A stretch of DNA of 64,000 nucleotides from Thermoplasmata archaeon (lineage in GTDB: Archaea > Thermoplasmatota > Thermoplasmata > Thermoplasmatales > GCA-001856825). Both the position numbers and the translations under genes were made by a program. The notes under the pieces are model-generated. The model made no database searches. It was not told where the DNA came from and saw nothing but the letters and a program-made list of their open reading frames with translations. Below are positions 12,922 through 24,601 of the stretch, piece by piece. Every line of letters starts with the position of its first letter. The stretch's first letter is position 1. The DNA lies in assembly GCA_021816725.1 (NCBI GenBank), contig JAKAXD010000001.1, forward strand, positions 62,001-126,000, in the 5' to 3' direction.

Positions 12922-13833
12922 TTACGTTTTACTACTGCTTCCTTTAGAATCCAGTATATCCCTTACTCCCTTCCTTACATCATACTCCGGCAGGAACTTC
13001 AGCTCTGCGTTTGATTTCGACATATCCGCCTGGGTGAAATACTGATAGCTCTTCAGGGGGTTTGGAACATATTCTGCTTCTCCTTCATACCCCATCTCCT
13101 CCTTCACTATTCTGAAAATTGAATTGAAATCGACAGATTGGCCCGTGCCAACGTTGTATGCTTCTCCCGGCTTCCCATTCTCCATTGCCAATATTGATGC
13201 CCTTGCAGTATCCTTGACATAAATGAAGTCCCTCCTCTGCGTCCCGTCTCCGTATATCGTAGGCTTCTTCTTGCTCCTGATGTCGTCTATGAATTTCCAT
13301 ATCACGCTTGAGTAGTTCCCCTTGCTGTTCTCGCCGATCCCGTAGGTGTTGAAATATCTCAGGAAAACGGTCTCTATATCATAGTTAAGGAATATCCTTC
13401 CAGTTATCTCGTTTATCCTCTTGCTTCCAGGGTAGAAATTTGTGTATGTACTGGGCAGCTCTGCCTCTTTTGCAGGCACAGATGTCTGGCCGTAAATGGA
13501 TGAGGACGATGCCAGTATGACCCTCTTAACTTTATTCGCAGCGCTCGCAGCCAAAACGTTGTACGTCCCGATGACATTTACCCCGTATCCCTCCCCCGTC
13601 AGGTTTTCGAATTCAGGAGGGGATGTCACGGCTGCAAGGTGAAAAACATAGTCTATTCCCTTGCACGCCTTCAAAAGCATATTCATGCTCCTTACATCCT
13701 GCATTATGTGGTAGTCAGCTTCTGAATCCTTATCCCTGATATCCAACGTTCCTACCGTATAGCCTTCCTTCTTGAGAAGACTGACTATATTCCTGCCTAT
13801 GAACCCCGAGCCTCCGGTAACGAGTATGTTCAT
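12922..13833 (-). CDS. NAD-dependent nucleotide-sugar epimerase/dehydratase
   Basis: A 303-residue extended short-chain dehydrogenase. It has the Rossmann motif GGSGFIG at residues 7-13, HLAAVTSPP near 65-73, the active-site serine region SSSSIYG at 109-115 and YPGSK at 134-138 as the catalytic YxxxK. RRDFIYVKD later in the chain is typical of UDP-glucose 4-epimerase-like enzymes. It probably epimerises or dehydrates an NDP-activated sugar for the surface glycan. The gene is divergent from the hddA homologue with a 113-base gap, and converges on the surface protein genes. Exact substrate not readable; a GDP-heptose or UDP-hexose is possible. Confidence 0.85.
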   Translation of the reverse strand: MNILVTGGSGFIGRNIVSLLKKEGYTVGTLDIRDKDSEADYHIMQDVRSMNMLLKACKGIDYVFHLAAVTSPPEFENLTGEGYGVNVIGTYNVLAASAANKVKRVILASSSSIYGQTSVPAKEAELPSTYTNFYPGSKRINEITGRIFLNYDIETVFLRYFNTYGIGENSKGNYSSVIWKFIDDIRSKKKPTIYGDGTQRRDFIYVKDTARASILAMENGKPGEAYNVGTGQSVDFNSIFRIVKEEMGYEGEAEYVPNPLKSYQYFTQADMSKSNAELKFLPEYDVRKGVRDILDSKGSSSKT

Positions 13834-13946
13834 TCACTACCACAATCGATAAAACAATAAATTTCTATCTACAACCATGAATGTGGGAGAATTAGAGTCT
13901 TGCCATCAGGAAACTGTTATTAATTGGAAGGTGTTATTTTGCCATT

Positions 13947-14933
13947 ATGCTCGATAGAATGGTGATGACGCGTGCACCCCTCAGGATAACGTTTGTAGGT
14001 GGAGGGACGGACCTTCCGTTCTACTACGAGAAGAGGGATTATGGCGCAGTCGTTTCATCAGCGATAAACAAGTATATTTACGTCACAGTCAACAAGAAAT
14101 TCGACGACAAGATAAGAGTGAGTTACTCAAAGACTGAGATTGTAGATGACGTGGGCAGCATAGAGCACCCTTCCGTAAGGGAGGCGCTGAGGTTTCTTGG
14201 CATTGAGAAGGGGATAGAGATAGTGAGCATATCAGACATCCCGTCAAAAGGAACCGGACTGGGTTCGAGCAGTTCCTTTCTTGTAGGGCTTCTCCATGCG
14301 CTTCACAGTTACAAGGGGGAGTTTGTAAATTCGGACGAGCTAGCCAGGGAGGCCGTGAAGATAGAAAGGGAGATACTGAGGGAAGAGGGGGGGAAACAGG
14401 ACCAGTACATCGCCGCACATGGCGGAATCAACCTGATGAAGTTCATGAGGGACGGGAGCGTCGATATGACGAGCGCAATATCCCACGACAGTAACCTTAA
14501 GAAGATAGAGGATTCATTGCTTCTACTCTACACGAATGTGGAGAGAAGTTCTACTGAAATACACAAGGACCAGATAGTGAATTCAGCACAGAAGATGGAG
14601 ACTTATGACGAAATGAAGAAACTTGCAGAACTGGCGTTCAGGGCAATATGCGACGGAGATGTGGATTCTCTTGGCGATATGATGGACAGGAATTGGAGGA
14701 TGAAGAAGTCTCTTTCCAGCAAGATAAGCGACGGCTGGATCGACGAGAAGTATGAGATGTCACTGAAGCTGGGTGCAAAGGGAGGGAAACTGGTTGGTGC
14801 GGGAGGGGGTGGATTCCTTCTGCTCGTAGCCGAACCTGGGAAACATGAAATGATTGCGACGGAACTGGGGCTGAGGAAGGTAGATTTCAAGTTCAGTCAG
14901 TCGGGGAGCAGGGTGATTTTCGTTGGGGATTGA
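13947..14933 (+). CDS. hddA: GHMP kinase, heptose-7-phosphate 1-kinase type
   Basis: A 328-residue GHMP kinase. The N-terminal TRAPLRITFVGGGTDLP (residues 8-24) is the hallmark of D-glycero-alpha-D-manno-heptose-7-phosphate kinase (HddA); the phosphate loop GTGLGSSSSF is at 102-111 and the C-terminal glycine motif VGAGGGGF at about 283-290. HddA makes heptose 1,7-bisphosphate in the GDP-heptose route. Its stop overlaps the start of the gmhA homologue, the enzyme one step earlier, which strongly supports the assignment. A start at 13959 (MVMTRAP) is an alternative. A related sugar-1-kinase activity cannot be excluded. Confidence 0.85.
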   Translation: MLDRMVMTRAPLRITFVGGGTDLPFYYEKRDYGAVVSSAINKYIYVTVNKKFDDKIRVSYSKTEIVDDVGSIEHPSVREALRFLGIEKGIEIVSISDIPSKGTGLGSSSSFLVGLLHALHSYKGEFVNSDELAREAVKIEREILREEGGKQDQYIAAHGGINLMKFMRDGSVDMTSAISHDSNLKKIEDSLLLLYTNVERSSTEIHKDQIVNSAQKMETYDEMKKLAELAFRAICDGDVDSLGDMMDRNWRMKKSLSSKISDGWIDEKYEMSLKLGAKGGKLVGAGGGGFLLLVAEPGKHEMIATELGLRKVDFKFSQSGSRVIFVGD

Positions 14934-15489
14934 CGTAAGTGATTTGAAAAAATATGTTGATGACGGAATCAAGGCAAGGAAGTCTATAGACGTTCAGGAA
15001 ATTGCGAATGTTTCCAAAATTCTGTACGAACGTCTCAGAAGAGGAGGGAAGCTCATAACGTTCGGTAATGGGGGATCTGCTGCCGACGCACAGCACTTTG
15101 CTGCTGAACTGTCAGGGAAATTCATGAATGAGAGGAGATCGTTCCCAGCAGTTGCACTTACAACCAACACCTCTTCCATCACAGCAATAGGCAACGATTA
15201 CAGCTATGCTGAGGTCTTCTCAAGGCAGCTGGAGGGCATATGCACAAAGGACGACTTTGTAGTTGGAATAAGCACATCCGGAAACTCACAGAATGTCATA
15301 GGTGCAATGAAAAAAGCGAGGGAAGTAGGTGCATTCACCCTAGGCCTGACGGGGAAGGATGGAGGAAAGTTGAAGAATGTTGTGGATCAGTGCATCAATG
15401 TTAATTCCGACCTCACCCCAATAATTCAGGAGGTGCACATAGCAATTATCCACATGATTTGCTATTCCTTCGACGCCATGCTGGAGTAG
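14923..15489 (+). CDS. gmhA: Phosphoheptose isomerase (SIS domain)
   Basis: A 188-residue SIS-domain protein. FGNGGSAADAQHFAAEL (about 47-63) matches GmhA, with the metal-site His and Glu at about 58 and 62; GISTSGNS (about 115-122) binds the sugar phosphate, and IQEVHIAIIH (about 167-176) supplies the late Gln and His. GmhA converts sedoheptulose 7-phosphate to D-glycero-D-manno-heptose 7-phosphate. The start is a TTG at 14923 preceded by GGGTGA, overlapping the end of hddA by 11 bases, so the two are translationally coupled. Its 3' end overlaps the convergent epimerase gene by 28 bases. Assignment is firm on motifs and context. Confidence 0.88.
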   Translation: MGIDVSDLKKYVDDGIKARKSIDVQEIANVSKILYERLRRGGKLITFGNGGSAADAQHFAAELSGKFMNERRSFPAVALTTNTSSITAIGNDYSYAEVFSRQLEGICTKDDFVVGISTSGNSQNVIGAMKKAREVGAFTLGLTGKDGGKLKNVVDQCINVNSDLTPIIQEVHIAIIHMICYSFDAMLE

Positions 15490-16382
15490 AGAAGTTTCAG
15501 TCCCTTGTCAAGGCTGATCTTTGCGGAGAATCCTATCTCCCTCTTCGCTTTTGAAACATCTGCCTGCGTTACCATGACATAGTTCTTGACGGGCATCTTG
15601 ATGTACTTTGGTTTGATATTCATCTTGGTTATCTTCTGCAGCCTATCAACGGCTTCATTGAGGGAGTAACTCTTGCCGGTTCCAACATTGAGGATGTTGA
15701 AACCCTTTGCCCCAGAAGCCTTCAGGAGTGCATCCACTACATCCGACACAAAAACGAAATCCCTGCGCTGTTCCCCATCTCCGTATATCACAGGTCTCTC
15801 CTTGTGCATCATCGCATTCATGAACTGCGTCAGGAGGTTGGAATATACCCCCTTCCCTATATCATTGTAGCCGTATATTGAAAAGAACCTCATGGCTGAA
15901 ACGTTCACGTCGTGGAGTCTCGTATACAGTTCTCCCATTCTTTCACAGGCTATTCTTGCCTCAGTGTAATAATCCGTGACGCCTGGAATAACGCTCTCCT
16001 TGTGCGGAGGCGGTATGCCGTTGTATATTGAGGATGTTGACGCGAACACCAGCGGTGTGTTATGTTCCCTGCAGTATTCCAGAACGCTCGTAATACCGTA
16101 GACTACTTCACCTACGAGACTCGGGTTATTCCTGTACATAGGAGATGCGGAATAGATTCCAAGGTGGAAGATGTAGTCAAAATCTTCCTTCATTTTACTG
16201 ACATTCTTGGAATCACCTTTCACGAAGACAGCTCCGTTATCCACTGCACCCTTTATGTTACTCTTCTTACCAGTATGAAGATTGTCAAGAACGACAACTT
16301 CGTTATCCTTGTAAAGGCTATTTACAAGATTGCTGCCTATGAATCCCGCCCCGCCCGTTACCAAAATTTTCTTGCCTTTCAC
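15462..16382 (-). CDS. Second nucleotide-sugar epimerase, YxxxR variant
   Basis: A 306-residue extended short-chain dehydrogenase with the NAD motif GGAGFIG (10-16), STSSIYNG (about 115-122) and RRDFVFVSD, as in UDP-glucose 4-epimerases. The catalytic tyrosine is followed by TEAR (139-143), so the usual YxxxK lysine is an arginine. This may mark an archaeal subfamily or altered chemistry. It differs clearly from the epimerase at 12922, so each probably handles a different sugar. It ends inside the last codons of the convergent gmhA homologue. A role in making the activated sugar for the surface glycan is inferred from context. Confidence 0.8.
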   Translation of the reverse strand: MKGKKILVTGGAGFIGSNLVNSLYKDNEVVVLDNLHTGKKSNIKGAVDNGAVFVKGDSKNVSKMKEDFDYIFHLGIYSASPMYRNNPSLVGEVVYGITSVLEYCREHNTPLVFASTSSIYNGIPPPHKESVIPGVTDYYTEARIACERMGELYTRLHDVNVSAMRFFSIYGYNDIGKGVYSNLLTQFMNAMMHKERPVIYGDGEQRRDFVFVSDVVDALLKASGAKGFNILNVGTGKSYSLNEAVDRLQKITKMNIKPKYIKMPVKNYVMVTQADVSKAKREIGFSAKISLDKGLKLLYSSMASKE

Positions 16383-16548
16383 AGAAAGAAATCCATATGC
16401 GGTATAAAATAACTCTGACTCCCTTCTGCATTTGATTGAACGCTTCTAGATCAGCGTGGCCAATAAGTAGGAGTTCCACATTTCATGTATGAAATTTTAA
16501 TTCCATGAATTCGTCGTGTGAGTAGTACGCCAAAATAATTCACGGACT

Positions 16549-17229
16549 TCATTCTGAATAGATTTTCCGAATCTCATCGTAATCTTTGATTGTGTCTACA
16601 GGTTTCCAGAAACCACTGTACCTGTAGGCAGCTATCTCTCCCTTTCTGGCAAGTGCTTTGAATACTGAGCCTTCTATCCCCTTGTCCGCATAATTCCTCT
16701 TCAGGAAAGGCTTGATTCCACGCTTCAGGAAATATGTGCCACCGTTGACGTAGTAAGGAAGATAAGGTTTCTCATCAAATCTTGTCACAACACCATTGTC
16801 AATTGAAACCATACCGAATGGGCTTCTCATCCTGACCACCATCATGCTCGCAACCTTTCCGTTTGACTGTGAAAACCTTATGAATCTATTGAGATCAAGA
16901 TTGCAGATCGTATCGCCATTCCGTAGCAGTACATCAGAATCAATATTTGAAAATAGGTTGCGAACCGCCCATAAAGTTCCCATGGGCTCACGTTCCCTGA
17001 GATAATGAAGCTTTAGTCGATTCCACCTGTTGCCATATCGTCTCTCAATTGCATCTCCCTTGTAGCCAGTCAAAAGGTAAACATCATCTATTCCTGCGGA
17101 TTCGTAATCTGAAAGTTGTTTGTCTAGAATGACAAAATTGTCTTTAAGGGGGAGCAGAACCTTAGGAAGGTCTGAATCTACAGATTGCAGTCTCTTTCCA
17201 TAACCCCCCGCAAATATGGCACCGATCAC
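16549..17229 (-). CDS. hddC: Sugar-1-phosphate nucleotidyltransferase, HddC-like
   Basis: A 226-residue nucleotidyltransferase of the GT-A fold: AGGYGKRL at 7-14 and PKVLLPL at 22-28 form the NTP-binding signature, RNGDTICNLD at about 108-117 holds the metal-binding Asp, and FDEKP and GGTYFL follow as in sugar-nucleotide pyrophosphorylases. Size and motifs fit D-glycero-alpha-D-manno-heptose 1-phosphate guanylyltransferase (HddC), which would complete GDP-heptose synthesis with the gmhA and hddA homologues 1-3 kb away. Glucose-1-phosphate thymidylyltransferase-like enzymes look similar, so the nucleotide and sugar rest on context. It is transcribed alone on the minus strand. Confidence 0.75.
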   Translation of the reverse strand: MIGAIFAGGYGKRLQSVDSDLPKVLLPLKDNFVILDKQLSDYESAGIDDVYLLTGYKGDAIERRYGNRWNRLKLHYLREREPMGTLWAVRNLFSNIDSDVLLRNGDTICNLDLNRFIRFSQSNGKVASMMVVRMRSPFGMVSIDNGVVTRFDEKPYLPYYVNGGTYFLKRGIKPFLKRNYADKGIEGSVFKALARKGEIAAYRYSGFWKPVDTIKDYDEIRKIYSE

Positions 17230-17285
17230 ATATAGAAAATTCCAACCAGTCGATAAATGTTTGCAAGTAAGAAAGGAAAGAGAAA

Positions 17286-17377
17286 TTTAAGATATAAAGC
17301 GGCCAGTGGTTATTATAATGACTATCAGGAAGGTAACTCCAATCGTATTGCAGAAATATAAAAAATGGAAGAGATAA
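17286..17377 (+). other. TATA box and 19-residue basic ORF
   Basis: A TATA-like tract (TTTAAGATATAAAG, 17286-17299) lies at the right distance for a leaderless transcript beginning at the ATG at 17318. That frame gives a 19-residue basic peptide (MTIRKVTPIVLQ then a Lys/Arg/Trp tail) ending at 17377, directly against the stop of the convergent thermopsin gene. It may be a true microprotein or chance. The peptide cannot be assigned. Confidence 0.3.
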
Positions 17378-19717
17378 TCATCTCTTCCGTCTAAGCAAAA
17401 CAACAGCAACCAATGCTAGGATCACAACAACAGCAACGGCTGCAATTATTATGGAGTAATTGAAATTCTTGCTTGCTTGTACTGACAATCTCAATATGGA
17501 ACCTGAGACAGTTGCAATTCCTGAAAGTTGAGAACTAGATTTCGCGCTGTAATCAGTGGGAAGGTGGACCTTATAGGAATACGTCCCGTTTGGAACATTG
17601 AACGTTATGGCGCCTGAAGTGGAGTTCTGTGTTATGTTGATGCTCTGTCCGTTGAATGCCGTTCCAGTCAGAGTTACTGACCATGATGTTCCGTTGGGAA
17701 TTCCGCTTTGACTGACTAATAAGGCATATCTTGCGACGCTCCACGAGATAGAATTGCTAGCTGCGTTTCCATTAACCATGACTACACCAGAGTTGGGAGT
17801 GGAATTGTACCCATGAATTACCTGGACCTGGTACTGGTATGTGCCATTTGGTTCCTTCACCGTGATGGTGCTGCCGGTTGATGTCAGGTTGGTGCCGTTG
17901 AATGTTACTGCCCACGAAGTTCCAGTGGGAAGCCCAGTTTCAGAAAACGTCACTAGGAATTCGACTTCTGTGAAAGTCACTGGCTGATAGACGGACGAAC
18001 CAGCTACTGAGAAGGAGCCTCCCCCGGATTCATATATCTTGTCGTTAGTCTCAATGGAATATTGGTAAGTACTGTTAGGGAGGTTAGCCGTATAGGATGA
18101 TGAAGTAATTGGTCCTGACGATTCCCCGTTGCTAAGGTTGACGTACCAGATCTCACCGCTAGGCAGTCCTTGCTCTATGAAAGTCACTTGGTATGTCTTC
18201 AGCAGGAACTGTATTTGTTCCGTGATACTGAACCCCGCTACCGTGAAGCTCCCTGAATGCGAAGAGAGATAGTAATCACGATCAACGCTAGAAACAGTGT
18301 AGGAATAGGAGTTGTTGACTAGTGCGATGTAGTACACGCTCCCAGAAATTGGCCCTGAAGATAGCTGTCCGGTGACGTTCACGTACCAGATCGACCCAGA
18401 CGGAAGCCCTATAGAACTGAATTGAACCTCGTACAAATGAGCATTAAGTACATACTTCGTCCCAGCAGAAAACGTATGATTTCCAAGGCTAGTTACCTGG
18501 CCAGTTGCATAATTGTAGATTTGTATTGAATATGTACCGGGATATATTGACAAGTTGGCGGAACCTCCAGTAAAGTCCACCGAAGACGTCCCTCCAAGTA
18601 TCACCGTTCCGCTCTGTACGTTAGTGTGTATCTGAACATCCGTTAAAGAGGAGCTAAACCAAAGACTTCCTAAGGATCCTGATCCGTTCGCAACGTTAGC
18701 GAAGAGCTCGCCGCCGCTGCTAAAGTAGCCAGCACTGATGGCATTGAAAACACCTTCAGCTGTGTCGCTTCCAAAGTTGAAAGCATTTGGTATCGTCTGG
18801 AAGTTATATCCGTTCCAGTACTCCAGCTCCAGGTTGACATTTGATGCCAACAGTTCAGTTTGGCTCCCCCCTCCAGGTCCTCCGAGAATCAGTTCAGCAT
18901 CGTAGAAGGAGTAGCCGTTTGGCTCGTATATATTTCCATCAACCAGGAACACAGGCGTTGTCTTCAGCTGTGTTGCGAAAATAAGTGCTGCGTTATCGAA
19001 GGTGATCCAGCCGTAGCCGTCATTGTACAGGAAATCCACCTCAGGGAAACCATGAGAATTTATGAACGTATCAGCCTCTAGGTAGAGTGTTGAACCTAAG
19101 TTAATGCTTATGTTGTTCCCCGGTAGATTTGCATTCGCAAAGTCGTAGTAGTACTGCTGGTTTCCAGACAAACCAACTGTCCCGTTCCCAAGCACGGTAG
19201 AGTTGTACATCGAGGCTCCGTAAGACGAAACATTCCAGATGTTATCAATAAAGATAATGTTGCCATTGGTGGTATTCAGTGCAGCAACGTCTTGGACCCA
19301 GTACACGTAGAGCGCATTCAGGTTTGCGTTATAGAAATACATGTTGACATTCAGTTGGAAAGTGATTTCCGGGCTGTGCTGTGACGAACTGTAGGTCTGC
19401 AGTGATCCTATCTGGACCATCCCCTGAAACGAAGATGTTGTGTATGAATAGGGAAAACCAGACTGACCTATTCCATAATCAGCTATACCCATCGGTGCAG
19501 GTTCCTTTTGGTACCCCGAAAAAACGGATACCCGTTGCCCCTTAGGAAGGATAGGGTTTCCAGATATGGGTGTGAGTTGAGCGTGACCAGATTTAGCACT
19601 AGCAGAATTCCCATCAGACATGCCAGCCCCAAAAACGTATGAAGAGCCAAGCATCAGTGCTATCAAAACGACAAGAAAGACTAGTGCCATTGATGGCGGT
19701 TTTTCATTAGTCATCAT
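17378..19717 (-). CDS. Membrane-anchored thermopsin-family acid protease
   Basis: A 779-residue secreted protein. It has a signal sequence (about 8-30), then the peptidase A5 (thermopsin) domain with the hallmark PMGIADYGIG near 75-84 and the conserved YWVQDVAAL and DNIWNVSS stretches. Four repeats of about 75-79 residues start near 429, 507, 586 and 661, each with a (V/L)xFxExGLPxGxxW-type opening and a closing strand. A membrane helix (about 753-774) and RRKR tail anchor it. Thermopsins are acid-stable extracellular endopeptidases, so this enzyme likely digests protein outside the cell while tethered to the surface. Many N-glycosylation sequons are present. The family is firm; catalytic residues cannot be pointed out with certainty. 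Confidence 0.85.
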   Translation of the reverse strand: MMTNEKPPSMALVFLVVLIALMLGSSYVFGAGMSDGNSASAKSGHAQLTPISGNPILPKGQRVSVFSGYQKEPAPMGIADYGIGQSGFPYSYTTSSFQGMVQIGSLQTYSSSQHSPEITFQLNVNMYFYNANLNALYVYWVQDVAALNTTNGNIIFIDNIWNVSSYGASMYNSTVLGNGTVGLSGNQQYYYDFANANLPGNNISINLGSTLYLEADTFINSHGFPEVDFLYNDGYGWITFDNAALIFATQLKTTPVFLVDGNIYEPNGYSFYDAELILGGPGGGSQTELLASNVNLELEYWNGYNFQTIPNAFNFGSDTAEGVFNAISAGYFSSGGELFANVANGSGSLGSLWFSSSLTDVQIHTNVQSGTVILGGTSSVDFTGGSANLSIYPGTYSIQIYNYATGQVTSLGNHTFSAGTKYVLNAHLYEVQFSSIGLPSGSIWYVNVTGQLSSGPISGSVYYIALVNNSYSYTVSSVDRDYYLSSHSGSFTVAGFSITEQIQFLLKTYQVTFIEQGLPSGEIWYVNLSNGESSGPITSSSYTANLPNSTYQYSIETNDKIYESGGGSFSVAGSSVYQPVTFTEVEFLVTFSETGLPTGTSWAVTFNGTNLTSTGSTITVKEPNGTYQYQVQVIHGYNSTPNSGVVMVNGNAASNSISWSVARYALLVSQSGIPNGTSWSVTLTGTAFNGQSINITQNSTSGAITFNVPNGTYSYKVHLPTDYSAKSSSQLSGIATVSGSILRLSVQASKNFNYSIIIAAVAVVVILALVAVVLLRRKR

Positions 19718-19850
19718 AAGAATTACATCAACTCAGATTTTATGGGTTAAAATACTTTTACCAACTTAGTATCTTTAGATTGGTGCTACCTTGATTGTCA
19801 CTTCACCTTTCCCGTTGGAGGTTAAATTGCGTCAAACCTTCAGTAAAAGC

Positions 19851-19859
19851 ATAAATATA
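19851..19859 (+). promoter_or_regulatory. TATA box of tRNA-Met gene
   Basis: ATAAATATA lies 22-30 bases before the first base of the tRNA, the distance expected of an archaeal TATA box from the transcription start. Confidence 0.7.
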
Positions 19860-19880
19860 GTACCAGCATCCCAGAACCGA

Positions 19881-19955
19881 AGCGGGGTGGGGTAGCCAGG
19901 GTATCCCGACGGGCTCATAACCCGTAGACCGATGGTTCAAATCCATCCCCCGCTA
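19881..19955 (+). tRNA. Initiator tRNA-Met (CAU)
   Basis: The acceptor arms AGCGGGG and CCCCGCT pair over all seven positions, including the A1-U72 pair typical of archaeal initiators. The anticodon loop is CTCATAA (anticodon CAU), flanked by GGG and CCC, the three G-C pairs that mark initiator tRNAs. The T arm is GATGG-TTCAAAT-CCATC. The discriminator is A at 19955 and CCA is not encoded. No intron is seen. A degenerate relative of this sequence lies at about 21546-21614 on the other side of tnpB. Confidence 0.95.
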
Positions 19956-19988
19956 TGTTTCAAGTCGTATTGTTGAAAGCAGTTTTAC

Positions 19989-20300
19989 ATGATGAGACAA
20001 AAGGCTAAGAAATCTAAACCTGCTCCAGATTTGGAGTCCGATAATTCAGTACCTATTCTTTAACTGAAACCAATACAAAACAAAGTATCTAAAGTAGGAT
20101 ACAGATATTACAATTTTCTTACTGAATCTGGGCTGACTAAAGAGAAATTGGCAGGAGATACGAGGTGTGTTGTTTCAGTGATATTTCTACTCAGAATTCA
20201 TTCATTTTTTCATTTTATTCATTTCTCAGGACGCATAGAGAGATTTATGTACCATACCCTGGATAATAAGCCAACGACCGGTTCGTCAAAGAGAGGAAAA
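19989..20300 (+). pseudogene. Broken ORF with one in-frame stop
   Basis: From the ATG at 19989 a basic, polar reading frame (MMRQKAKKSKPAPDLESD and on) meets a TAA at 20061-20063, then continues in the same frame with coding-like sequence (LKPIQNKVSKVGYRYYNF and on) to a stop near 20300, the later part being less convincing. One nonsense change therefore separates the two halves. The protein is not recognised. Its place between the tRNA gene and tnpB suggests a decayed gene of an inserted element. The first half may still be made as a 24-residue peptide. Confidence 0.35.
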
Positions 20301-20304
20301 TGAA

Positions 20305-21546
20305 TTGACCCACCTTTGGAAATCGAATGGCACAAAGAGAACGATATTGTGGTCTTATAACCCATCTCCCCTTCTGCTGCAATACCTAGAAGACATGAGG
20401 GACGCAATCAGGTATGGGGTTATGAAATCATATCTTCAATGGGAGAACAGTGGATATATGCCCTCCCCTATAGACCTGAGGAGGGAGATGAAGCAGTGGT
20501 TTGATTCTCGCTATAGTTATGCGAAACACCACATCAATCCCGTGTGCAGATCTTCCGTTGCAATACTGAAGTCGTTCAAAAAGAACCACCACAAGAAGAG
20601 GTACCCCGAGGTAATGAGACTCGCAATCAGACTAGACTCAGAACTAGTAAAGATTGCTGGTGACAAGATAAGGATAACTATCAGACCAGGCGAATACGAC
20701 TACATCCCTATCAACTCACGAAACAAGAAGTGGAGGGAGTATTCTAACTACAGGATAGGTGAGGTTCTCATAACGGATAAAGTAATTGCTATATCGTTCA
20801 TATTCCCAAATAATGAACTGAGCGATGAAAAAGTTGGTATCGACATCAACTTCAAATCAATAGTCGGAACAGTCGTGAATAAGGGCGAAGTAAAAGAAAC
20901 ATTCACAGAATACATTCCCAACATAGCGAGGATACAGAACGACTTCTCTAGGAGGAGGCGCCAGTTACAGAGGCACATAAAAAACAAAGAGAAGAGGTAC
21001 AAGAAACTCAAAGAGAGTAGGGGAAGGCAGAGGAACAGGATAAAAGATGCCCTACATAAACTCTCTTCTAAAATTGTCAGTGAGCATCTCGAATCGTCGT
21101 TCATCCTTGAGGACCTAAGAACAATTAAAAAGAGTTCCAATAACAAATCAAAGAAGCTGAGAACTTATCTCAACAGGTGGCCGTATTCACAATTCCAGAA
21201 AATGCTGGAATACAAGAGTCAATTCAGGTCAGTATACGTGAATCCAGAAGGGACTTCGTCAGAATGTCCTGTTTGTGGTGGTAGACTTGAGCACCCTATC
21301 TGGAAGATGTCTAGATGCAAAAACTGTGGTAGGGACTACGACAGGGACAGGCTTGCTTCACTTGCAATAACCCTTCGTGGCATCTATCTTTGCGGAGGCC
21401 CGTTCCCCGTGAGTGCGATAGCCTCTTTATCATTAGTGAGGAATGAATACCTGTACATCAACCACAGACCTGATGTGGCTGAAGCAGGAGGGACCGATAT
21501 GGTAAACGCTTCGAATATCCTTGTACAAGAGAGTATAAGACCCTAA
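20305..21546 (+). CDS. tnpB: TnpB-type RNA-guided nuclease of IS200/IS605 or IS607 group
   Basis: A 413-residue TnpB. The RuvC residues are all present: D180 in VGIDIN, E269 in FILEDLR and D348 in DYDRDRLAS. The four-cysteine zinc ribbon lies between the last two (C321, C324, C338, C341). A basic coiled stretch (about 215-245) is usual for the family. The start is taken as TTG at 20305 after GAGAGGA; an ATG at 20395 is the next choice. No TnpA gene is near, so the element cannot move by itself. The catalytic set is intact, so it may still cut DNA guided by an RNA from its 3' end. The gene stops exactly where a decayed initiator-tRNA copy begins. Confidence 0.9.
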   Translation: MTHLWKSNGTKRTILWSYNPSPLLLQYLEDMRDAIRYGVMKSYLQWENSGYMPSPIDLRREMKQWFDSRYSYAKHHINPVCRSSVAILKSFKKNHHKKRYPEVMRLAIRLDSELVKIAGDKIRITIRPGEYDYIPINSRNKKWREYSNYRIGEVLITDKVIAISFIFPNNELSDEKVGIDINFKSIVGTVVNKGEVKETFTEYIPNIARIQNDFSRRRRQLQRHIKNKEKRYKKLKESRGRQRNRIKDALHKLSSKIVSEHLESSFILEDLRTIKKSSNNKSKKLRTYLNRWPYSQFQKMLEYKSQFRSVYVNPEGTSSECPVCGGRLEHPIWKMSRCKNCGRDYDRDRLASLAITLRGIYLCGGPFPVSAIASLSLVRNEYLYINHRPDVAEAGGTDMVNASNILVQESIRP

Positions 21547-21614
21547 GAACGGTAGCCAGGAATCCCGATGGACTCATAATCTCCAGACAGGAGATTCAAA
21601 TCAATTTCTCGTTG
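21546..21614 (+). pseudogene. Degenerate initiator-tRNA copy
   Basis: Aligned from GGTAGCCAGG, about 47 of 64 bases match the real tRNA at 19881-19955, including the whole anticodon loop CTCATAA, ATCCCGA and TTCAAATC. Changes are mainly C to T and G to A. The acceptor, anticodon and T stems no longer pair, so it cannot work as a tRNA. It begins at the tnpB stop codon. It is either a duplicated target copy left by integration at the tRNA or an old second tRNA that decayed. Confidence 0.75.
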
Positions 21615-21942
21615 CAAAATTATGGTCACATACGAATCGCTACAAAATCACCACTTCACGGTTCATATGACGAAGGTGAGAACAGACTGTTCAGCGCATT
21701 TGAAAGTGCCCTGCTCTTTGTGTCATCGTTTTTTCATCCAGCAGAAGACATATAATTGCCTGAATCAGTATAGAAACCTTTCTCCAAATCTGTTGGCCGG
21801 TTAAAAATGTCGTGTTCATTTGGAACCATTCTTCCCTCATTTCAGAATTAACTGAGGATATAGTTTTATATATCTATTGTTTACTAAGAATAAATGAAAA
21901 TCCCTAGATTAGAATCTAGGGCTAATTAAAAGAAATAAGAGA
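21615..21942. other. Intergenic remnant region
   Basis: No firm gene. A plus-strand frame is open from within tnpB through the decayed tRNA to a stop near 21756 and looks weakly coding (a YDEGENRLFSAFES stretch), but it has no clear start and overlaps the tRNA ghost. The rest is AT-rich and ends in a perfect hairpin at 21902-21921. Confidence 0.3.
21902..21921. terminator. Perfect 9-base hairpin
   Basis: CCCTAGATT and AATCTAGGG are exact inverted copies with a 2-base centre. It lies 22 bases beyond the stop of the minus-strand oxidoreductase genes, with a T-rich tract between them on that strand. It may help end that transcript or be the end of a mobile element; symmetry alone cannot decide. 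Confidence 0.45.
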
Positions 21943-22878
21943 TCAGCAGAACGATTCCATAAGTTTAGTGATGTCATTCAGCGGCTTTCCAGCAGAATCA
22001 ATGGGTTCCATAACGTAGTTCTTTTTGCCGTAGTCAGGTACAAGTTTCTGCAGCTTCTGGTCGTACGTTTCAGTCTGGTAATCAATGAAAACTCCCATCG
22101 GTATCCTGTCACCCCATTCCATTGACTTTGCGACTGCTTGCGGAAGCTTCTGCTTGTATTCTTCCTCATTGTTTGCAGCAGGATTCCATCCTTCCTTCTC
22201 AATGTCGTATAGCCTTGGATCGTAGAATTCCTTTGTGTTTATGTTGTTGTAAGTCACGCAGGGCTGCATCACGTCCACCAGCGCCAATCCCCTGTGCTTC
22301 ATTGCCCTTATCAGCGTCTCCTTCAGGTGCTTTATGTTGTACGAATAGCTCCTTGCCACGAATGTGAAGCCGGATGCAAGGCCAAGGAAGAGCGGATTTA
22401 CCGGGAACTTCAGGTTTTCTGTCTCTATGCTCTTTGGCATCTCCCCATATGGCAGAGTTGGAGAAGCCTGACCCTTTGTCAGTCCATAAACTCCATTATT
22501 GAAAAGTATGTAGGTGAGGTCGACATTCCTCCTTCCAGCCGCAACAAAGTGTGCAGACCCTATTCCCAGTCCGTCCCCATCACCTGAAGCAGATATAACT
22601 TCCAGTCGTGGGTTTGCCATCTTAACCGCCTGTGCCTGTACCAGCGACCTGCCGTGGAGCGTGTGCAGCGTGTTCACGTTTACGTAATGAGGTATCTTGG
22701 AGCTGCACCCTATACCTCCTGTGAGGACAACATCTTCATTGGGTATCTTCATTTCCTGGAGTGCCAGCACCAATGCGTTGAGTATACCGAAATCTCCGCA
22801 ACCAGGGCACCAGTCTATCTCCACGTTTGTCCTGTAGCTCTGCGGTTTTGCCGGCGGAGTTGCAGCGGTACTAATCAT
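21943..22878 (-). CDS. 2-oxoacid:ferredoxin oxidoreductase, beta subunit
   Basis: A 311-residue thiamine-diphosphate-binding subunit. DWCPGCGDFGILNA (about 23-36) is the family start, GDGDGLGIGSAHF (about 96-108) with NNGVYGLTKGQ (about 127-137) forms the TPP/Mg site, and ATPTxP-like ASPTLPYGE follows. The length and two-subunit layout match the archaeal type known from Sulfolobus. It oxidatively decarboxylates 2-oxoacids such as pyruvate or 2-oxoglutarate to acyl-CoA, reducing ferredoxin. The start overlaps the upstream alpha gene's stop by 8 bases, so both are made from one mRNA. Substrate range cannot be read. Confidence 0.92.
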   Translation of the reverse strand: MISTAATPPAKPQSYRTNVEIDWCPGCGDFGILNALVLALQEMKIPNEDVVLTGGIGCSSKIPHYVNVNTLHTLHGRSLVQAQAVKMANPRLEVISASGDGDGLGIGSAHFVAAGRRNVDLTYILFNNGVYGLTKGQASPTLPYGEMPKSIETENLKFPVNPLFLGLASGFTFVARSYSYNIKHLKETLIRAMKHRGLALVDVMQPCVTYNNINTKEFYDPRLYDIEKEGWNPAANNEEEYKQKLPQAVAKSMEWGDRIPMGVFIDYQTETYDQKLQKLVPDYGKKNYVMEPIDSAGKPLNDITKLMESFC

Positions 22879-24601
22879 AACTCAACACCTCCCTCTTTCC
22901 AAGCTTTGGTTTGCTGAGCACTTGAACCATCTCCTCAAATGCGATCGGCCTCCCGTTGAATTTCACTATTCTTGAGATGGCTTCCAGTCCCGTCTTCTCC
23001 CTCAGCAGGTCAGCAAGCTGTCCGCTGTAATTCTGTTCAACGTCTATTATCGTCTTTCCATTCAGATATTTCATAACTGCCTCCACAGGGAACGGCTCCA
23101 TCATCCTTATCTGAAGTAGTGAAACGTCCTTCACTACTTCCATTGCATCAAGGATCGGTCCCTTCGCCGAACCCCATGATACTATTACCTTCTTGTTCTC
23201 CGGCTTCCCATAGAACTTTACTTTCATATCAGGAGGAACTTCCTTGAGGATAGAAGAGGTCTTGTGCATCCTCTTGTCCATCATCTTTATCCTGTTGTCA
23301 GCATCCTCTGTGAATATGTGACCGTCCTCATCGTGCTCATCGCCTGCTATCGTCACAAGTCCGCCCTTGACCCCTGGTACGGATCTTGGTGAGATTCCAT
23401 CTTCCGTGAATCTGTATCTCAAGTAGTCCTTCGTCTCTTTCAAGATCAGTTTCCCCCTGTCAATTCTTGTCTTGCTGAGATCAAATAGATCTACAGTATA
23501 GTTACTCATTGCCATTGCCTTGTCTAGGAGAACGATGACGGGTAGCTGGTATTTCTCAGCAATGTTGAATGCTTCAACTGTGTCGTAGAACGCTTCCTTG
23601 TGATCACCTGGCGCTATCAGAACCCTTGGGAACTCACCGTGACCTGCGCTAAGTGCATACTTCAGGTCACCCTGCTCATGCCTCGTCGGCATTCCTGTCG
23701 CCGGCCCAGCCCTCTGGTAGTAGAATATCACCACAGGTGTTTCCGTCATCCCTGCATATGAGAGCGCTTCCACCATGAGCGAGAATCCTGGTCCTGATGT
23801 GCTTGTCGCAGCCCTCAGTCCAGTGTTGGCAGCTGCAATTGCCATGTTTATGGCTGCTATCTCATCCTCAGTCTGCTCAACCACGAAGTCATACTTGTCC
23901 ATTATAGTCTCAAGGTAGTTTGACTCGTCGCTCGCAGGCGTGATCGGATAGTAAGACTGGAACTTCAGACCAGCAACCATCTTGCCCATTCCGACTGCGT
24001 GGGTGCTGTTTATCAGCATCCTCTTCTTGTAAGTGACGGGTTCCAGGTCAAATGTTTTTGAAGGCTTGAATTCAGCATACACCTCGTCAACTATTGCATT
24101 GTTCATCTCCGCAATCTTTGGCCTCGATGCGAAATTCTCTGAAATGATCTTCTTGAGCTTCTCCTTGTCGATGCCTATCATCTTCGTTGCACCTGCAAGG
24201 GCTACAGTGTTCTTCATCACGTTGAACTCCGACAGTGCCTTCCCGAATTTTGTAGCGACTGTCTGCAGAATGTCATTGTAAGGTATTATTGCGTGCCTTG
24301 GGTCGTCAAGTTTGTCCTCATAAATTATTGAACCGTCCTTTGACAGCTCCTTCACGTGAAGGAGGACGCTCTTAGAATCCAATGGGATGAGTATGTCTAT
24401 CCTCTCTGAATAGCTCCTGATTATATCCTTGCACACTCTTACCCTGAAATAAGAGTGTTCACCCTTTATCGTTGAGAAGAGTTCAGCATTCGTGAATACC
24501 TGATATCCCTCCCTTGTCATAAGCTTCGCAAAACTATCAGACGTGAAATTGATTCCGCTACCTTGGGGGCCGGCTACCATAAGATTTAGGTCATGCATCA
24601 T
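22871..24601 (-). CDS. 2-oxoacid:ferredoxin oxidoreductase, fused gamma-alpha subunit
   Basis: A 576-residue fusion: the first 190 residues are the gamma domain (GPQGSGIN near 11-18, a typical opening), and the rest the alpha domain with the YPITPASD motif near 217, which matches the conserved YPITP element of this archaeal enzyme class, and VSWGSAKGP near 480. It pairs with the TPP-binding beta subunit downstream to form a heterodimeric enzyme in the cytoplasm, serving central carbon flow between 2-oxoacids and acyl-CoA. The ATG at 24601 is well placed; the upstream gap to Sec61-beta is divergent. Confidence is high on both domain motifs. Confidence 0.92.
   Translation of the reverse strand: MMHDLNLMVAGPQGSGINFTSDSFAKLMTREGYQVFTNAELFSTIKGEHSYFRVRVCKDIIRSYSERIDILIPLDSKSVLLHVKELSKDGSIIYEDKLDDPRHAIIPYNDILQTVATKFGKALSEFNVMKNTVALAGATKMIGIDKEKLKKIISENFASRPKIAEMNNAIVDEVYAEFKPSKTFDLEPVTYKKRMLINSTHAVGMGKMVAGLKFQSYYPITPASDESNYLETIMDKYDFVVEQTEDEIAAINMAIAAANTGLRAATSTSGPGFSLMVEALSYAGMTETPVVIFYYQRAGPATGMPTRHEQGDLKYALSAGHGEFPRVLIAPGDHKEAFYDTVEAFNIAEKYQLPVIVLLDKAMAMSNYTVDLFDLSKTRIDRGKLILKETKDYLRYRFTEDGISPRSVPGVKGGLVTIAGDEHDEDGHIFTEDADNRIKMMDKRMHKTSSILKEVPPDMKVKFYGKPENKKVIVSWGSAKGPILDAMEVVKDVSLLQIRMMEPFPVEAVMKYLNGKTIIDVEQNYSGQLADLLREKTGLEAISRIVKFNGRPIAFEEMVQVLSKPKLGKREVLSYD

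What the first reader, a model, noticed from the sequence alone, without database searches (positions are those of the whole stretch)
19881..21614. Lone TnpB between the initiator tRNA and a decayed copy of it
About 47 of 64 bases of the tRNA recur at 21546-21614, starting at the tnpB stop. Known: TnpB takes a guide from sequence right after its element's right end. Inference: if that end is at the stop, the guide would resemble the initiator tRNA gene itself, so the element may sense, protect or re-enter tRNA sites; alternatively this is integrase-type duplication.
Basis: partly seen in the sequence, partly recalled or inferred. Interest (0 to 1): 0.7.

Follow-up and report, generated by a model that had tools for sequence, protein, structure and literature searches.

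The report
TnpB relic beside displaced tRNA copy
In an acid-loving archaeon an old jumping-gene nuclease (TnpB) sits between the start tRNA gene and a worn-out copy of that tRNA, so its guide RNA would be made from tRNA sequence; the layout is best explained as one insertion on top of another at a busy tRNA insertion site, and the guide no longer matches the cell's own tRNA.

Summary
A lone tnpB (20305-21546) lies between the initiator tRNA (19881-19955) and a decayed copy of tRNA positions 11-75 (21551-21614; E 4e-7, above 1000 shuffles). IS607-type homologs in the order nearly all end in (G/A)(A/G)GAACGG just before host DNA. The window's element ends the same way at 21552, exactly where the copy begins, so a TnpB guide would indeed be tRNA-derived. 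The sister genome (Thermoplasmatales archaeon I-plasma) shares the arrangement and shows a tandem: tRNA - tnpB - copy - AbiE toxin-antitoxin - second copy. More distant relatives have tRNA - AbiE - copy, or no insert. This fits repeated integrase-type insertion at the tRNA, with the IS607-type element landing at the GG that opens a displaced copy. tnpB is vertically inherited and under purifying selection (dN/dS 0.18), but the guide drifts between the two species and does not match the host's tRNA (9 of 20 mismatches ungapped, 1-nt offset after position 8). Sensing, protecting or re-entering the tRNA is therefore not supported; integrase-type duplication is. The left end is decayed and only approximately placed, and no integrase for this site was found. 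A new instance of known element types, with an unusual guide source.

The parts
19881..19955 (+). initiator tRNA-Met (CAT), intact
19956..20129 (+). spacer between tRNA and element, shared only with G006; probably remainder of an earlier insertion
   Evidence: 76% identity to G006, no other hit better than E 0.04 in seven genomes
20130..20131 (+). best candidate for the left end (TCTGG|GCTGACTAAAGAG), decayed; alternative near 20055
   Evidence: position relative to tnpB and to a conserved T-rich stretch in lone-tnpB homologs; no significant PWM hit
20305..21546 (+). tnpB, 413 aa, RuvC acidic residues D180, E269, D348 and zinc-finger cysteines present; no tnpA
21520..21539 (+). predicted hairpin CTTGTAC-AAGAGA-GTATAAG near the 3' end of the presumed omega RNA
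   Evidence: same position as the TTATGCA/TGCATAA hairpin of homologs, inner pairs changed on both sides
21540..21552 (+). right end of the IS607-type element, ...AAGAACGG, GG core 21551-21552
   Evidence: conserved in the homologs with a readable end
21551..21614 (+). decayed copy of tRNA positions 11-75; natural guide would begin at 21553
21615..21904 (+). relic of an AbiE cassette: leader and start codon of abiEii (21894), then a deletion joined at AAATCCC (21898-21904)
   Evidence: alignment with G006 and G001

Best explanation
The initiator tRNA gene is an insertion site in this genus. Insertions of integrase type keep the tRNA intact and leave a displaced copy of positions 11-75 on the far side (inferred). 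One brought or carried an AbiE toxin-antitoxin pair; another left the copy next to tnpB. An IS607-type element, which recombines at GG, inserted at the GG that opens this copy (right end shown, left end inferred). It then lost tnpA and its left end decayed, while tnpB stayed under purifying selection (shown) with a predicted omega-RNA hairpin. Its guide is tRNA-derived only because of where it landed; it has since drifted and should not cut the host's own tRNA (inferred from mismatches).
For: Conserved right end AAGAACGG abuts the copy. Homologs carry a serine recombinase tnpA upstream and share a left-end motif GG|GYTTTAACNG. A second, unrelated cassette (AbiEii/AbiEi) at the same tRNA ends in a copy starting at the same tRNA position. 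Empty sites: G008 and probably G012, tRNA followed directly by the oxidoreductase gene. Native downstream sequence resumes after the last copy in G006. All three AbiE-side copies share a changed U8 and D-loop while in G001 the 3' 50 bp match its own tRNA, as in a hybrid attR. IS607 targets (G)GG (PMC6188088); archaeal integrase sites can span the D-loop to the tRNA 3' end and occur in tandem (PMC8371274). tnpB dS 0.25 between window and G006 is like nearby downstream genes (0.15-0.33) and dN/dS is 0.18.
Against: No integrase lies at this tRNA in any genome read, tested integrase-bearing tRNA loci gave no comparable copies, and no IMG/VR contig carries this tRNA 3' end. The left end is not significant by PWM. 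Landing exactly at the copy's first GG is a mild coincidence: 14 GG (20 CC) in the reconstructed 514-bp region. Purifying selection on an immobile tnpB suggests some retained function that this account does not name.
Confidence: 0.75

Rival explanations
1. The TnpB element itself moves as a tRNA cassette: it carries tRNA positions 13-75 at its left end and inserts by its GG right end into the tRNA, restoring it each time.
For: Copy begins exactly at the IS607 GG core; the AbiE copy also begins at this GG; the tRNA has GGGG at positions 9-12, a preferred (G)GG target.
Against: AbiE copies carry U8->C in three genomes, which cannot come from a working tRNA unless the change arose once afterwards; the AbiE cassette has no IS607-type right end; no homolog of the family has a tRNA at its left end.
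Confidence: 0.1
2. The TnpB is kept because its tRNA-derived guide cuts initiator-tRNA attachment sites of incoming DNA or sibling species, guarding the insertion site.
For: Window guide plus GG matches the initiator tRNA of G001 and G010 with 2 mismatches in 21, and G002 and G011 share that D-loop length, while its own tRNA is offset by one base; tnpB is under purifying selection.
Against: The G006 guide differs and matches no tRNA within 3 mismatches in four genomes; the mismatch at guide position 9 lies in the likely seed; left flanks of homologs favour AGG before the target, the tRNA offers GGG.
Confidence: 0.07
3. An old tandem duplication of the tRNA gene, later interrupted by tnpB, with no integrase involved.
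For: Copies cover the whole gene except the first ten bases.
Against: The AbiE copy lacks positions 1-10 too, without any tnpB; native downstream sequence follows the last copy, as in site-specific insertion.
Confidence: 0.06

Closest known systems
IS607-family TnpB elements (homologs of 45-68% identity in Thermoplasmata)
   Same: TnpB domains, right end GAACGG with GG core, hairpin before the right end, serine recombinase in mobile homologs
   Different: tnpA missing, left end decayed, guide lies in a displaced tRNA copy
Archaeal tRNA-integrating elements of tyrosine integrases
   Same: intact tRNA on one side, displaced 3' part on the other, tandem insertions, hybrid copy
   Different: cassettes of only about 1.7 kb without an integrase gene
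AbiE type IV toxin-antitoxin
   Same: AbiEii and AbiEi models hit in the relatives
   Different: sits as a tRNA-flanked cassette; only its leader remains in the window

Membership tests
IS607-family element | serine recombinase TnpA | tested here: not met
   no tnpA in the window; present in close homologs such as G010. Hence a derivative, not a complete member
IS607-family element | GG core and conserved ends | tested here: inconclusive
   right end met; left end only approximate
TnpB RNA-guided nuclease | RuvC acidic triad and zinc finger | tested here: met
   D180, E269, D348 and four cysteines invariant in alignment A1
TnpB RNA-guided nuclease | omega RNA from the 3' end of tnpB | tested here: inconclusive
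   hairpin at the conserved place, about 3% by chance; no RNA data
Tyrosine-integrase insertion at tRNA | direct repeat of the tRNA 3' part flanking the insert | tested here: met
Tyrosine-integrase insertion at tRNA | cognate integrase | tested here: not met
   none at this tRNA; integrases occur elsewhere in the genus, so the insert is called integrase-type, not an integrase element
Nuclease-dead TnpB-like repressors (TldR) | loss of RuvC residues | tested here: not met
   residues present

The most novel reading that the evidence does not exclude
A TnpB retained after immobilisation uses a guide copied from a displaced tRNA attachment site to cut initiator-tRNA sites of competing elements or sibling species, while its host's own tRNA escapes through a one-base D-loop difference.
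Probability: 0.05. Interest if true: 0.85.

Novelty: new member of a known kind. Interest (0 to 1): 0.38.

Why it matters
It is a clean natural case of a TnpB whose guide would be taken from a tRNA-derived sequence and which is nevertheless tolerated, because the displaced copy differs from the working gene. It also shows how small defence cassettes (AbiE, TnpB) pile up at one archaeal tRNA without their own integrase.

Tried and rejected
No standalone omega-RNA copies of the tnpB 3' end in the own or sister genome. No attP-like hit in IMG/VR. Tyrosine integrases next to other tRNAs in the genus did not show comparable tRNA copies. Independent transfer of AbiE as a cassette was considered from dS 0.32 (G001-G006) against 1.67 for the neighbouring oxidoreductase gene, but the thermopsin gene upstream of the tRNA shows the same low dS (0.35, window-G001), so transfer of a larger block by homologous recombination is equally possible. 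Left-end PWM gave no significant site. Paper searches for TnpB together with tRNA genes found nothing on point.

Full report
What is there. The window lies in a Thermoplasmata metagenome assembly (G000:C17). Its sister genome G006 is Thermoplasmatales archaeon I-plasma. The initiator tRNA is at 19881-19955, followed by 174 bp of spacer, a lone tnpB (20305-21546) and a decayed copy of tRNA positions 11-75 from 21551. The copy scores far above shuffled controls and is shared with G006, whose tRNA, tnpB and copy are collinear.

Where the element ends. Twenty-six of 117 genomes of the order have related TnpB proteins at E<=1e-20. In the homologs whose 3' junction could be read, host DNA starts right after a conserved (G/A)(A/G)GAACGG, the GG being the exchange core known for IS607 elements (PMC6188088). 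The window reads CCCTAAGAACGG|TAGCCAGG, so the right end is 21552 and the flank used as guide is tRNA position 13 onward. In G006 the motif is AAGAATGG. Mobile homologs carry a serine recombinase upstream; the window does not. The left end has decayed: comparison with lone-tnpB homologs favours 20130, but a motif scan finds nothing significant.

What surrounds it. In G006 the copy is followed by AbiEii/AbiEi genes and a second tRNA copy, then the oxidoreductase operon. In G001 the tRNA is followed directly by AbiE and a 95% identical copy of positions 11-75; G003 has AbiE and an 89% copy, and G011 has AbiE after the tRNA up to the contig end. G008 has neither. In the window the AbiE leader survives to its start codon and the rest, with the second copy, is deleted at a 7-base microhomology. 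Three AbiE-side copies share U8->C and a D-loop variant, whereas in G001 the 3' 50 bp equal its own tRNA; this is what a crossover within the tRNA would leave, although gene conversion could do the same (inference).

Is it alive. Between window and G006 tnpB has dS 0.25 and dN/dS 0.18, matching dS of the nearest downstream genes, so it has been inherited and constrained since the species split. A 7-pair hairpin sits where homologs have theirs, with five inner pairs changed on both sides; about 2.8% of window positions show such a hairpin by chance. The tRNA copy itself is about 84% identical between the two, close to neutral.

What the guide could hit. The window guide has no other match within 3 mismatches in its own genome. 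It matches the initiator tRNA of G001 and G010 with 2 mismatches in 21. The G006 guide matches nothing else in four genomes. Own tRNA and guide agree for 8 bases, then are offset by one. Left flanks of homologs end mostly in AGG, the tRNA offers GGG. So neither conserved targeting nor self-cutting is indicated.

Conclusion. Two known processes stacked at one site: integrase-type insertion that displaces part of a tRNA, and an IS607-type element landing at the GG of the displaced part. The tRNA-derived guide is real by position but looks accidental. What keeps tnpB under selection is unanswered.

Noticed in passing
window 12925-24601 with L156, L157, L033: The tRNA is a recombination boundary: downstream genes of window and G006 have dS 0.15-0.5 or so, genes upstream are near or at saturation; thermopsin next to the tRNA has dS 0.35 between window and G001 while genes on either side exceed 1.2.
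   Followed up: partly
L076 (G005:C19) 333-2471: A close TnpB homolog without tnpA sits inside a tyrosine-integrase-like gene.
   Followed up: no
L033 4858-7302: Between the AbiE cassette's tRNA copy and the oxidoreductase genes, G001 has an AAA/DUF4143 protein (PADLOC PDC-S01) and a HepT/MNT pair; G003 keeps HepT/MNT.
   Followed up: partly
L002 (G000:C12:24771-24896): A second, broken TnpB remnant in the own genome.
   Followed up: no
L043 end and L074 start (G014:C27, G014:C26): Contigs break within the 3' 55 bases of the initiator tRNA, hinting at mixed occupied and empty sites in that population.
   Followed up: partly
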